64,000 bases of DNA, from assembly GCF_019649055.1 (NCBI RefSeq), contig NW_026570299.1:310001-374000 (forward strand), written 5' to 3'. The stretch is from Paramacrobiotus metropolitanus (lineage: Eukaryota; Tardigrada; Eutardigrada; Parachela; Macrobiotidae). Shown piece after piece: positions 7,036 to 36,700 of this stretch. The notes beneath the pieces are model-generated. The model saw only the letters and a program-made list of their open reading frames with translations. It ran no database searches and was not told the origin of the DNA. A program made the position numbers and the translations under genes. The stretch's first letter is position 1. Every line of letters begins with the position of its first letter.

Positions 7036-8120
7036 CGGTTGACGTTTTCGTGTTGAGCAGCATTCAGGAACGACTGCGGCGAAGCATTCCCAATGTATGC
7101 CCAATACGGAAACCAACTAATGTTAACGACTACCACATTATATCGTTTTGCGTAGTTTGAACTAATTGTAAGCAGCTATCAATAATGCGAATAAAAAAGC
7201 GCGAAAATTAGGAGTACAGAGTAATATACGGATATGTGTATAATGCTACAAATGTGGGAATTTCGCATCGATACTTTTAATGTTATTATGCAAGCGTTGG
7301 GCACAGGTTACGTTACAAGTATTTTGGACATTTTTCCGCATAGCTAATGCCATAAACGAAATAGGTACTTTACCGTACTTATCTTCTCCTGTTTTACCCC
7401 AGAGTACATAGTAGTAAGTACTTTGTACGAACACTATCTGTAATAACATAAATTTTATAAGTAATAAGCTACTCGTACTCTGCAGGTAGAATTCTGTCGA
7501 AATGGTCGTATGCTGAAAAGTCTGTATGGCGAATGTTCATATGCCAAAATGTCGTTTTGCGCACCGAAAAGCGTGTTAGTGGAACTGTGGAAGGTCTAAG
7601 TGCCCATCTGCACGCCAAGGTACATACATAGTAAGTAACTCGAAAACACAACGAGCTGCATTTCTACACTTACGAAAGGTGAAACTCATGTTCGACTTCC
7701 GATTGTGGTAGGTAAGGACAAGAGCAGTAAGTAATGCACATTTAATGCCGGTCAAGCAAGCTCCTTAGCAACGCACTTACCACTTTGTTCGATCACTGAC
7801 GAAAAATCGGCGATATTCAGCGCGCATAGACGTGACATTCAAACTGATTGCTTCTATACACTGTACACAACCTCCATGGGAGTTACACTTGCTAAATTGT
7901 TTCCTATAGACGTTAAAAATAGCGTTTTGCTTTATATATGCATGAGTACGATCCTCCTGGCCATCCGGAGTGCGCGGAAACGTTCCAATGTTCGCCACTG
8001 CTGTCACATACAGACACAGTATAACGGGCGGCTGTAGTTATTATGTCGGCGCGTCTCGCCAAAGACATGTCGTGCTCACAATCAGTGTTATCTGGCCCGT
8101 CACCTGGCACCCAACGTGGA
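7036..8120 (+). repeat. partial array unit 1 (landmarks A, B and P)
   Basis: Contains the hairpin landmark A (7036-7120), landmark B (about 7750-7885; CTCCTTAGCAAC...GCGCGCATAGACGTG) and landmark P (about 8035-8070; AGTTATTATGTCGGCGCG). The same three occur in the same order at 21811-23800. No coding function is seen. Confidence 0.7.
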
Positions 8121-8299
8121 CACTGGACAGTAGCAGCAACCTTTAGGTACAATAATTTCATGCTATGTGCTCTGCACACTGTAAAGGTTATTCCCTGTAG
8201 AATCAGTGTAAGACAGCCGCATGGTCTTATTAAGTACCAGAAAACGTACAGTCGGTACATATGCGCATTCTTGCTCGGCATGCTGTTATTGGCTCTCTT

Positions 8300-32383: not shown

Positions 32384-34399
32384 GTAAGTTAACAGAATTG
32401 AGTTTATGGTATTCTACAATACGTCCATAGTGGGAATACGAAAAATAGGGACTACAAAAAAGAAATGTGGGCTTTATGGATGGTATCAGAAGTTGGTTTT
32501 TCCCGTTTTGTTTTTTTCTCTGGTTTTGAATCACCGGGTTCGGTACGTTTCGGGCTGGACTGCGCACCTTCTGGACTTTCTGGTTGAGAGTGTTGTTCGA
32601 TCAAGCCGATGTCCAGGGCCCAGTTTGCGATAGTTGTCGCCGGTGTACTTTGCAATGCGTAATAATAGGTCTTGTTGTGGCCGGACTGTAACCCACCGTT
32701 GTTATAGTGAGTGCAGATCAAGTTCGTGAAGTAAACAACTTTTTTTCATAGACGTATTTAGGCATAAAGAAGGAAAACTATTGTGTTCCGCTGAGCATTA
32801 AGTACTACTCGTTCCACTATCCTGGCAGTTGACAAACTTGCGCTTTTGGCATAAAGTTCGCTGTTTCCACGCTCTTGAACTTTCTTGCCGTACGCCCTTC
32901 ACTGACTTTCATGGTATTGCGTGATACGATTCCTCTGTGGCGTATTTATTACTGCCATTGGTATAAGATATGGGCGATATGCCCCTTCATATAACGAATA
33001 CGGTTTGTTTTTAAAGAACACTGGTCAGCTGTTACTAATACACGGCTCCATATCTTCTGTATAATTTTTTAATTAGACATTTAAACCCATTTAGCTTATA
33101 CAGAGCAGAAAATTAACCGATAGATATCACAACGCAGTACACTCAATCAGCAGAAAACAGCCTCAGGAGGTCAAAGAACGGACAACAACTGATCCAAATT
33201 TGCTCCCTGAACGTGGAGCTGTTCCCTGAACGGAGGCCGCATTCCCGCGCATTACATTTTCTTCAGGCAATGCAAAACTGGAAGCACTGTCTGCCCTTGT
33301 CAAACATATTTCTGTCAGATCCGCACTTCTCATTAATCATTTCCGGTAAATTTCTGAAGAACACTTTTGTCGGTGTCCCATGATGCTTGAGCATTCTTAC
33401 ACAGTAGTCTCAAGTCTAGACAAATGCCTTGCGAAATTCCCCTGGACTTTCTGGATAACCACGCCCGTAATTCTTAAAAAACCAGCCCCGCCCGTAAAGC
33501 GTAGGGATATGCTTCTCCGGGTAACGATTCATTGTTACCTAACGAGAGAAATTCTTTACAGTAACATAGTCACCACCGTAAAACACCTGTGAAAAATAAT
33601 ACAGTACATTTTGATCACACCGGCATCCGCAAACGAGAGTTCAAGCTGAACCCCACTATAAGCATTGCGTTCATTTTCCGTAGTCACAAAATAGTCTCTT
33701 GTATGTATCACTATATCCAGGGTTTCACTGTTCGGAAACGGAAAAGCAACTGAAACGGATTACACAAAATCCAAAAAATATGCTTCGGCCAGCAGTATCT
33801 GTACACCACATCAGCTTCCCAATGTCTTCATTTAGCGATGGTTTTTCTCACTTCGGTCCATGTTTAATGCAATATTCGAACGAGTGTACAGAACTCCTCC
33901 ATTCATCTTCATCAAACCGTATCTAAACCGTTCCAATGTTTTTTTTATGTTTAAATTCATTAAGATTAGCCAAAAAGGGGAATCTCGAATTCGAAGAGAA
34001 TATGTCGAGTTGAAGAGCAAAAAAGCTGGCCTCTCTGTTCAAAATCATCGCAGTACAACAGCACATTTGTTATACCCTCTCCTCCTTCCGATATAAAAAC
34101 GAAGGCCTGCAACCGGTCTTGGTCAGAGCACATACCGAAATTTTAAAATAATAAATCTCGTTTGCTTCCTCGTAAAAATCACACGCGTACAGTTTCACAT
34201 ATTTACCTTCCAACAGAAAAGGTGAAAAACTAAAACTGGAGACTTCCAGTAAGCCATTCTTCCGGTCTAAGGATGACCATTTAGGCAACCATTTGCAGCT
34301 GTTATGCATCTGGAGCATGAAGTCTTTGATTCGCAGTACCAGAAACATTGCGTTGCAAATTTTCTTCGCAAAAAAAATACCAAAATGTGCACACGATTA

Positions 34400-36700
34400 C
34401 AAAATGTGCACTTTCGATTTCGTGGTGTTCTTTGATTTGTACGGAAGTCACCAACGATATGTTAATTCTTCCAATACAGAAAATGCTTTAGTAAGGTATA
34501 GCTTAAGCGGTCTCTAACATCTGCAGCGGCTCTTAAAGCAGGCGCATGGGTCATCGTGGATGAAGTATTGCTGCTTGTCTCCGCCATGACCTTTCCACGG
34601 TACGTGCTTACAGTTTTTCGCCGCTTCGCTAGCTGAATATTTGTATCAGTTAATAAAGCCTTAACCGTGTGGGTCAGAGCTTAGGCGTTGGTCTCCGACC
34701 ATACAGCGGTCGTCGACCTTGGACCGCGCGAAATTACTGCATAATTTTGGTTGGCGTTTCCGTGTTGAGCAACATTCGGGAACGTCTGCGTTGAAGCATT
34801 CCCAATGTTTGCTCGATACGGAAACCTACTAACGACCCAAAAAATTATCATTTCGCGGAACTAACGGCCGATGGCGAACCAACATAATTATTATGTAGAA
34901 ATGTTACTTTCGATACACACTGTCACGATTGCTCAATAAAAGCATCACGTAAAAGTACTAATACGAGTAATTGGTACAGTGGACTTCGTATGTGTAGCAA
35001 AACTACCGGTTGTATCCATTTCACTGTGATACCGACATCCTGCCTGCTACCGGTAATAAACTGGTGACCTTTCACAATTCACAGGCGTACAAATATGATA
35101 ATATGCGACTACAGATACTTACATGTACAACCGCTATCGTAGATTCTATCCGATCATTACGTTGTGTCGACTGCATTTTGCAATGAACGACATTTTCCTG
35201 TGGCGACGGTACGGTACCGTGACAAGTCCACCTGAGTCCGAGTAGGTCGCAACGTCATACCTGTCTAATTAGGTCTTTATGTCTTTATACATAATTGATA
35301 ATATAGATATATATATATCGAATTGCTCACGAAAAAATAAAAGGTATCTCTTATGCCTTATTACGCATTTGGTATCTGTAACAAAATTGCCGGTTGCACG
35401 AAACTGGTTTCCGTACTGATATTTTACCTGGTATTGCTGGTGACTTTCTGTCCTATTGTAATTCGATTATCGCACTATTGCTTTCTACAGTCATTTTCCT
35501 AAAAGCCACGTCGAAATTGCAACGTTAAGATTTTGCAATTTTACAATTTTATTTTTTGCGATAAAAATTTCTAACATACAAACATAAAAACCCGGGAAAA
35601 CGGACAACTTTAACGGCAAGGATACAGCTTCAAATATGAACATATCGGCAATAAACATCCTGTTTTGCAAACTCAACCAACTAGCAACGTTCTAAACCGA
35701 TTCATAAAGAAAAAGAATTTACACAGAAAAAAATAATACGAGATAATTTAGACGTACAGGATATAAACAAGAAAAAAATGCACTTAACCAGGAATGCAAC
35801 ACTGCGGAATGTCACGTGGCCCGTTTCCGACACGGGTTCAGCTGGTCCCGGCCACCGGCAGCGCCACACCGCCGCCGACCGGGAAGTTGCTGTGAAACAG
35901 CAGTTTATCGGCGGTGTCGTTGGACGGAGCCGCGGGGCGCGGCGGCGGGACGATACTGGGATAGGTCACCGTGCTGATGTGCCGCTCGAAGTAGGCGTGC
36001 ACCAGGGCGTCGTGCGAGGTGATGCGTTTGGTGGGATTGAAGAGCAGCATGTTCTGCGGACGAGAGTACAGTACTAATTATTAACAGAATAAGTAGCGGA
36101 TATTTTGGAGTAAATTCTCATAACATTCTAGCTATCCGTTCAGACAAGTATAACACCGATATTGTGACATATCGTAGTGCAGTGGCGAACAGTTGCGAAA
36201 AGTAATATGCACTTACCGTCAAAACAGAAACACATAACGTAAAATTCTACAGGGAAGAAGAACTATTTTTTTCTCCGGAAATATGCGGAATTTTTTTTAA
36301 TTTTTCCGCTCTCAGATATGGCCATTTTAACCAGCTAATTAATCAGAGAAATTTCATAACAGTTTTTTCAAGTTTTTCATTGGCTGGAGTAGTTGAAATA
36401 AGCAACATTTACTCGTAGCTGCACGATGGCGATATCGCAAAAACAGAAAAACGTTGAAATAAAAGAGAAGAGACTGAAAAAAAACACGAAATAACCCCAT
36501 GTCAAAAAAATGTAGAGTCGCGAGAAAATCTGTTATTTTAATATTTCGAAAAACCGAATTAAGCCGCTAATCTCAGCTTTAGTCATGTTGTTTTTCCTCA
36601 AAGCTATAAAATATTCCGGGTTAAAAACGGCAGTTAAGAGGGCGCACAAGTGGAGCGCGACATAACCGGCGGCCCATAAAAGCATAAAACAGATAAACGG
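34400..36700 (+). repeat. array unit overlapping the CDK4/6 3' end
   Basis: Contains the TTCGATTTCGTGGTGTTCTT block (34407; also 17206 and 21387), AAGCCTTAACCGTG (34660), hairpin A copy 6 (34747-34826), the TCCGATCATTACG block (35147), the CDK 3' UTR, the GACATATCGTAGTGC block (36167; also 30598), GAGTCGCGAGAAAATC (36513; compare 13243 and 30905) and AAAACGGCAGTTAAGAGGGC (36624; compare 13364 and 31021). The last three lie inside CDK4/6 intron 7. Confidence 0.75.
35548..35553 (-). terminator. candidate poly(A) signal of the CDK4/6 gene
   Basis: Minus-strand AATAAA, 285 nt 3' of the CDK stop codon. The homologous position is conserved in the array copy at 23118-23123. Confidence 0.5.

What the first reader, a model, noticed from the sequence alone, without database searches (positions are those of the whole stretch)
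7036..36700. Old higher-order tandem array fused to the 3' end of the CDK4/6 gene
At least a dozen short landmark blocks recur in the same order and orientation over about 30 kb. The hairpin block occurs six times (7036, 12590, 18581, 21811, 28999, 34747) at 3-7 kb spacing, and alternate units pair into a higher-order duplication (9.7-17.5 versus 25.8-34.7 kb). The same landmarks continue through the CDK 3' UTR and into its last intron. This suggests repeated unequal duplication of a gene-flanking segment, or a large non-coding element family that captured it. The landmarks were matched by eye.
Basis: partly seen in the sequence, partly recalled or inferred. Interest (0 to 1): 0.75.

Follow-up and report, generated by a model that had tools for sequence, protein, structure and literature searches.

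The report
Tandem array of conserved hairpins
Beside a cell-cycle kinase gene, in what is very probably a tardigrade genome, lies a stretch of about 152 kb with 22 copies of one hairpin sequence, all facing the same way and not found elsewhere in the searches made; it looks like an unrecognised cluster of non-coding RNA genes, but no RNA has been measured.

Summary
Genome searches with two hairpin types and two flanking blocks hit only this contig, though each missed some of the copies known here. The host is very probably the tardigrade Paramacrobiotus metropolitanus. Identity peaks at the ~90-nt hairpin (0.75-0.84, flanking bins 0.36-0.56). Several stem pairs change on both sides, and the stem pairs better read from the + strand (88.5% v 82.2% of cells); not every control favours this. 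No shared reading frame or Rfam family was found. Best reading: a tandem-duplicated cluster of structured non-coding RNA genes, most likely microRNA-type precursors, laid out somewhat like mammalian C19MC and C2MC. Transcription is untested. CDK4/6 is a convergent neighbour whose last coding exon lies between pieces of the last unit. A dispersed transposon family is not supported.

The parts
7033..7120 (+). Hairpin H (type A), C79:317033-317120
   Evidence: 95.3 bits
12586..12673 (+). Hairpin H (type A; by eye a short insertion after the 3' arm)
   Evidence: 81.3 bits
18579..18666 (+). Hairpin H (type A), 3' arm decayed
   Evidence: 62.0 bits, lowest of 22; long branch; z -1.0
21810..21897 (+). 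Hairpin H (type A)
   Evidence: 89.2 bits
28996..29083 (+). Hairpin H (type A; same variant as 12586)
   Evidence: 91.7 bits
34745..34832 (+). Hairpin H (type A), last of the array
   Evidence: 103.4 bits
7740..8120 (+). D block
   Evidence: nhmmer; genome search hits C79 only
14097..14427 (+). D block
23441..23839 (+). D block
31327..31649 (+). D block
6111..6264 (+). U block, holding a second, shorter hairpin
6827..6979 (+). X3 block upstream of H
12069..12208 (+). X3 block
17092..17269 (+). X3 block
21292..21438 (+). X3 block
28435..28587 (+). X3 block
34297..34474 (+). X3 block
9964..17529 (+). First copy of the higher-order duplication
25843..34725 (+). Second copy of the higher-order duplication
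   Evidence: pieces at 71-85% identity
36447..36688 (+). Array piece inside the last intron of CDK4/6
35762..35821 (+). Array piece just past the CDK4/6 stop codon
   Evidence: 85% to 23238-23297
35838..40862 (-). CDK4/6 gene, exons seen as open frames by eye; convergent with the array
   Evidence: one exon compared with solved structures, CDK6 in 6 of the 7 rows, an EGFR-labelled entry on top

Best explanation
The locus is a tandem array of non-coding RNA units. Each unit is a few kb long (hairpin to hairpin 1.0-31.3 kb) and carries, in the order U / X3 / H / D with parts often missing, a ~90-nt hairpin H whose RNA structure is kept by selection and is read from the + strand. Shown: 22 copies in one orientation at one locus, an identity peak at the hairpin, stem pairs that change on both sides. 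Inferred: the units multiplied by unequal crossing-over, partly as B-A hairpin dimers and later as larger blocks, and were kept because several copies of the same RNA are useful. Also inferred, and less sure (about 0.45): H is a microRNA-type precursor, cut from one long or several short transcripts running towards CDK4/6, giving a family of small RNAs of similar sequence.
For: 22 + strand matches of 62-106 bits on one contig; the - strand at the same places reaches at most 41.6 bits (model built from these copies). Genome-wide DNA searches with A- and B-type H, D and U hit C79 only, all +; the 14-base core of D occurs 13 times in the genome, 12 of them in the array. Identity over all 22 units is 0.84/0.75/0.76 in the hairpin bins, 0.36-0.56 in the flanking bins; in 10 of 11 unit pairs H is 80-92% identical, flanks 59-77%, and in 6 of these 10 no flanking window reaches H. 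Covariation on A1: 10 of 31 pairs with changes on both sides (shuffles 5.1, 1/500 as high), 18 such cells (9.3, 0/500), score 0.144 (0.115, 0/500). Strand: 88.5% v 82.2% of cells paired; + fold more stable in 18 of 22, 3 the other way, 1 tie (energies, tally); G-U 51 v A-C 27 cells, or 21 v 12 without three near-fixed positions. Shape: median 33 base pairs, 18 of 22 with z below -3; arms 0.87 and 0.82 identical, apical part 0.69. No + frame is open in more than 9 of 22 H, 0 of 18 D, 4 of 10 U.
Against: No transcript data. Pair types are not above shuffles (146/500), and sliding the 3' partners by +2 or +3 also gives 10 pairs with changes on both sides, though with fewer such cells (12 and 11) and a lower score; so the covariation is moderate. 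The - strand also beats its shuffles on the score (0/500) and has the same median z (-5.05 v -4.95). The U hairpin shows little strand preference (82.9% v 78.8%). In 4 of the 10 unit pairs some flanking windows match or exceed H (27/249, 5/69, 22/115, 15/60), so H is not the only conserved part. No Rfam match at gathering score, nor at E<=5 for the one copy tried. The CNNC motif is in 12 of 22 where sought, background 0.36, and more frequent right after the arm (20 of 22), so it says nothing. Four copies fold weakly (z above -3: 295817, 300069, 328574, 331807). ACE-type peptidase and Ig-domain frames lie inside the array on the - strand. H frames on the - strand are open in 13-14 of 22, in all three frames alike.
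Confidence: 0.5

Rival explanations
1. The hairpins are protein-binding stem-loops within one long non-coding RNA, as in roX or Xist, acting on chromatin or in cis and not cut into small RNAs.
For: Repeated hairpins in one orientation; two kinds of hairpin, H and U; other conserved blocks, D and X3, with little consensus structure.
Against: Hairpins lie kilobases apart and genes on the other strand lie between some of them, so a mature RNA would need many exons. The only splice-like sign looked at, the AG in D, is not kept in all copies (by eye).
Confidence: 0.25
2. The hairpin is a DNA-level palindrome (binding site, boundary or replication element) and the array is a cis-regulatory block.
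For: Near-palindromic H and U; D has a conserved GCTGCTTAGCAAC core that resembles an RFX X-box (recalled, not tested). The - strand folds about as well by z.
Against: H pairs better as + strand RNA, with two G-U pairs kept in most copies; the stem holds an A-C mismatch in most copies.
Confidence: 0.12
3. A neutral, decaying segmental array without function; the hairpin is conserved by chance or by gene conversion.
For: Old copies at about 60-85%, many incomplete units, retroelements inserted at several places.
Against: The identity peak sits on the hairpin in both subfamilies and stem pairs change on both sides; gene conversion confined to ~90 nt in all units is contrived.
Confidence: 0.11
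4. A dispersed transposon family that happens to be dense here.
For: A dispersed repeat does occur at 9964-10366. The genome searches are not fully sensitive: they found 17 and 16 of the 22 known H.
Against: H (both types), D and U hit only this contig, in one orientation and mostly in the same order.
Confidence: 0.02

Closest known systems
Mammalian tandem microRNA clusters C19MC (primates) and C2MC/Sfmbt2 (rodents)
   Same: Many hairpins grown by duplication of a non-coding unit, lineage-restricted, rich in repeats; [quoted passage not shown]
   Different: Here transcription, processing and imprinting are untested; no Alu- or B1-like repeat is shown to drive the growth; genes on the other strand lie inside.
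roX RNAs of Drosophila
   Same: A long non-coding RNA with a stem-loop recognised by double-strand-binding domains (PMC6451107, listing and start of abstract only).
   Different: Here the hairpins are kb apart over ~152 kb and no transcript is known; for P. metropolitanus the authors could not identify sex chromosomes (PMC11191345, passages).
Xist tandem repeat modules
   Same: Tandem modules in a non-coding locus (PMC8786293, listing and start of abstract only).
   Different: Xist modules are short repeats within one RNA (recalled); these are kb-sized units with several conserved blocks.

Membership tests
microRNA gene cluster | Single hairpin of ~80-100 nt with at least 16 paired bases in the arms, flanks less conserved (criteria recalled) | tested here: met
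   Median 33 base pairs, 18 of 22 with z < -3; identity peak at the hairpin
microRNA gene cluster | Arms more conserved than loop (recalled) | tested here: met
   0.87 and 0.82 against 0.69
microRNA gene cluster | Precise 20-26 nt reads from the arms with 2-nt overhang (recalled) | not testable with these tools
   No RNA data held
microRNA gene cluster | CNNC motif downstream of the cut (many, not all, animal microRNAs; recalled) | tested here: inconclusive
   12 of 22 at the place sought, cut site assumed; background 0.36; 20 of 22 directly after the arm
microRNA gene cluster | Match to a known Rfam family (helpful, not required) | tested here: not met
   None in the window or in L001-L013 apart from one tRNA outside the array; none at E<=5 for the one copy tried
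Dispersed transposon family | Copies at many unrelated loci with defined ends | tested here: not met
   H, D and U hits on C79 only; these searches missed some known copies, so far diverged ones could be missed
Tandem protein-coding gene family | Open frame shared by the copies | tested here: not met
   + strand: at most 9 of 22 H, 0 of 18 D, 4 of 10 U. - strand: 13-14 of 22 H in all three frames, 0 of 18 D, at most 3 of 10 U
lncRNA with repeated stem-loops (roX-like) | One transcript holding several stem-loops bound by a protein | not testable with these tools
   No transcript or binding data

The most novel reading that the evidence does not exclude
A lineage-specific ~152-kb RNA locus in tardigrades that makes about 20 paralogous copies of an unknown structured RNA (H, with a second hairpin U in some units): a new RNA family expanded by tandem duplication as C19MC was in primates, with a role that depends on copy number.
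Probability: 0.35. Interest if true: 0.75.

Novelty: new variant of a known kind. Interest (0 to 1): 0.55.

Why it matters
My paper searches listed no work on a large non-coding RNA locus or microRNA cluster in tardigrades (12 of 25 papers listed; 15 of 3,104; titles and abstract starts only, open-licence papers only). If real, a 22-copy hairpin cluster kept by selection would be an independent animal case of microRNA-type cluster growth by tandem duplication, outside mammals. It would let one test whether the copy number of a small RNA is itself selected, and would give the tardigrade field a concrete regulatory RNA to remove.

Tried and rejected
Transposon family: disfavoured by genome searches. 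Protein-coding units: no shared + frame. Known RNA or tRNA: none in the window; one tRNA at C79:185848-185920, outside the array. Splice acceptor in D: seemed plausible in the consensus, but the AG is lost in several copies (by eye). CNNC motif: uninformative. Relics of the CDK4/6 last exon in other units: none convincing. Array-wide excess of stable folds: none, means -17.2 v -17.0 and -17.3 v -16.9 kcal/mol. Naming the host by telomere patterns recalled from memory: no match for either; COX1 search: none. A CBS fragment is nearer to human than to insect enzymes, which first moved me away from an insect host.

Rows dropped and caveats: one of 11 pairs (276477/317030) gave 33% for H because the global alignment slipped; local BLAST gives 82% there; it is left out of '10 of 11', but the pooled figures printed include it. 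In one search three near-fixed positions are left out of '21 v 12' and kept in '51 v 27'. In one search, 18 of 20 D hits were used. In A4, 10 of the 11 + strand U hits were used; the piece at C79:281957 was left out.
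Full report
Check of the observation. The window is C79:310001-374000 of a 169.8-Mb assembly in 533 contigs. For 7000-36700 there are 41 direct and 2 inverted pairs, and none in 20 simulated sequences. All six hairpins are present.

Extent. One hairpin used as a genome-wide query gave 17 matches, all on C79 and all +. I fetched C79:180001-310000 and with a profile found 22 hairpins from 192429 to 344830, each also seen on the other strand because it is nearly palindromic. 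A covariance model built from them gives 22 + strand matches of 62-106 bits; of the other 21 matches, all - strand, 20 are at the same places and one is at E 0.82. B-type hairpin, D and U queries also hit only C79, all +. These genome searches are not fully sensitive: searches found 17 and 16 of the 22 hairpins known here, so distant relatives elsewhere cannot be excluded. Self-similarity is near zero in the first 10 kb fetched (0.00 and 0.02) and low, 0.00-0.12 per 5 kb, from C79:345001 on.

Host. The assembly fits Paramacrobiotus sp. TYO, now P. metropolitanus: the paper's table gives 170,483,395 bases, 684 scaffolds, longest 4,484,941, GC 43.46% (PMC8277472, passages). Here there are 169,799,020 bases, a first contig of 4,484,719 and a last of 10,170, and the window's GC is 43.6% (base counts). 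This is inference; the differences would fit a later version with short contigs left out.

Unit anatomy. Besides H there are a ~350-bp D block (20 hits, all +) and a ~145-bp U block (11 + hits; 2 - hits lie inside U hits and reflect its own symmetry), and an X3 block (17 hits, all +). Of 22 H, 18 have a D before the next H (one of them 21 kb away), 16 an X3 upstream and 9 a U upstream; distances between neighbouring hairpins run from 1.0 to 31.3 kb. The widest gap holds ACE-type peptidase frames and an Ig-domain frame on the - strand and retroelement frames.

History. In the hairpin tree nine copies (type B) form one clade with support 99/100; the other 13 are called type A here. Sister pairs from distant places (192429/206041, 213672/223138 and 254484/305061 with starred support, 197684/207089 at 93/94) and an A subgroup 289111, 295817, 322584, 338994 (94/93) point to block duplications. 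Eleven of 19 inner branches are drawn open for low support, and 328574 is a long branch.

Selection on the hairpin. The identity profile over all 22 units is 0.36-0.56 in the flanking bins and 0.84, 0.75, 0.76 in the three hairpin bins. In 10 of 11 unit pairs H is more alike than the flanks taken together (80-92% v 59-77%); in 6 of the 10 no flanking window reaches H, in the other 4 some do, among them the U block.

RNA structure. Counts on the alignment show 10 of 31 pairs with changes on both sides, reached by 1 of 500 shuffles, and a score reached by none. Pair types are not above shuffles (146/500). Sliding the partners by 1-3 columns brings the score from 0.144 to 0.036-0.069 and the paired cells from 88.5% to 32-44%, but +2 and +3 also give 10 pairs with changes on both sides. 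Paired cells lean towards the structure because it was derived from these sequences. I therefore call the covariation moderate. Read as - strand, 82.2% of cells pair and 6 pairs change on both sides. Energies favour + in 18 of 22, but z-scores do not differ. U shows 6 of 17 pairs changed on both sides on either strand, with 82.9% v 78.8% paired.

What it does. The hairpin has the size and shape of a microRNA precursor, its arms vary less than its tip, and no + strand frame is shared. Together with single orientation and tandem growth this resembles C19MC and C2MC (PMC6346411, passages). I commit to microRNA-type precursors as the most likely single mechanism (about 0.45), with a stem-loop-bearing long RNA next. 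No RNA evidence was available.

CDK4/6. Its frames run on the - strand from 40862 to the stop at 35838 (by eye); one exon matches CDK6 chains in 6 of 7 rows, the top row being an EGFR-labelled entry. Array pieces flank its last coding exon. The equivalents of two such flanking pieces (34974-35022 and 36512-36688) lie about 5 bases apart in another unit, at 13186-13234 and 13240-13425, so the exon segment is absent there. Whether the copies lost the exon or the array grew around it cannot be told.

Noticed in passing
window 350-5237 and C79:307400-310302: DIRS-like retroelement remains: reverse transcriptase (PF00078) and a weak tyrosine-recombinase match (below Pfam's cut-offs), with split direct repeats 99-100% identical (350-574/4756-4978, 4579-4762/5054-5237); beside them, by eye, another such frame. 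Young compared with the array.
   Followed up: partly
C79:226382-231021 and 233301-233780 (L005, L006): Frames of apparently two angiotensin-converting-enzyme-type peptidase genes (PF01401 in three frames) and an Ig-domain frame, on the - strand inside the array.
   Followed up: partly
window 53240-55673 and 60234-63499: Two related rhodopsin-type receptor genes on the - strand (7tm_1 in the one frame scanned); 84% identical over 204 bases. By eye of the thyrotropin-releasing / ecdysis-triggering hormone receptor type.
   Followed up: no
window 9964-10366: A dispersed repeat found on many other contigs; both copies of the higher-order duplication carry it, so it was inserted before that duplication.
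   Followed up: partly
window 32029-32388 (-): Isolated astacin peptidase fragment (PF01400) within a unit.
   Followed up: no
C79:281957-282144 (L011): Two U hairpins in tandem with nearly perfect arms of different sequence (by eye); the most stable 90-nt window of the 194 kb (-58.8 kcal/mol).
   Followed up: partly
D blocks, e.g. window 14116-14129: 14-base core GCTGCTTAGCAACC: 12 of 13 exact genome copies lie in the array, all +; the other is at C69:198322.
   Followed up: partly
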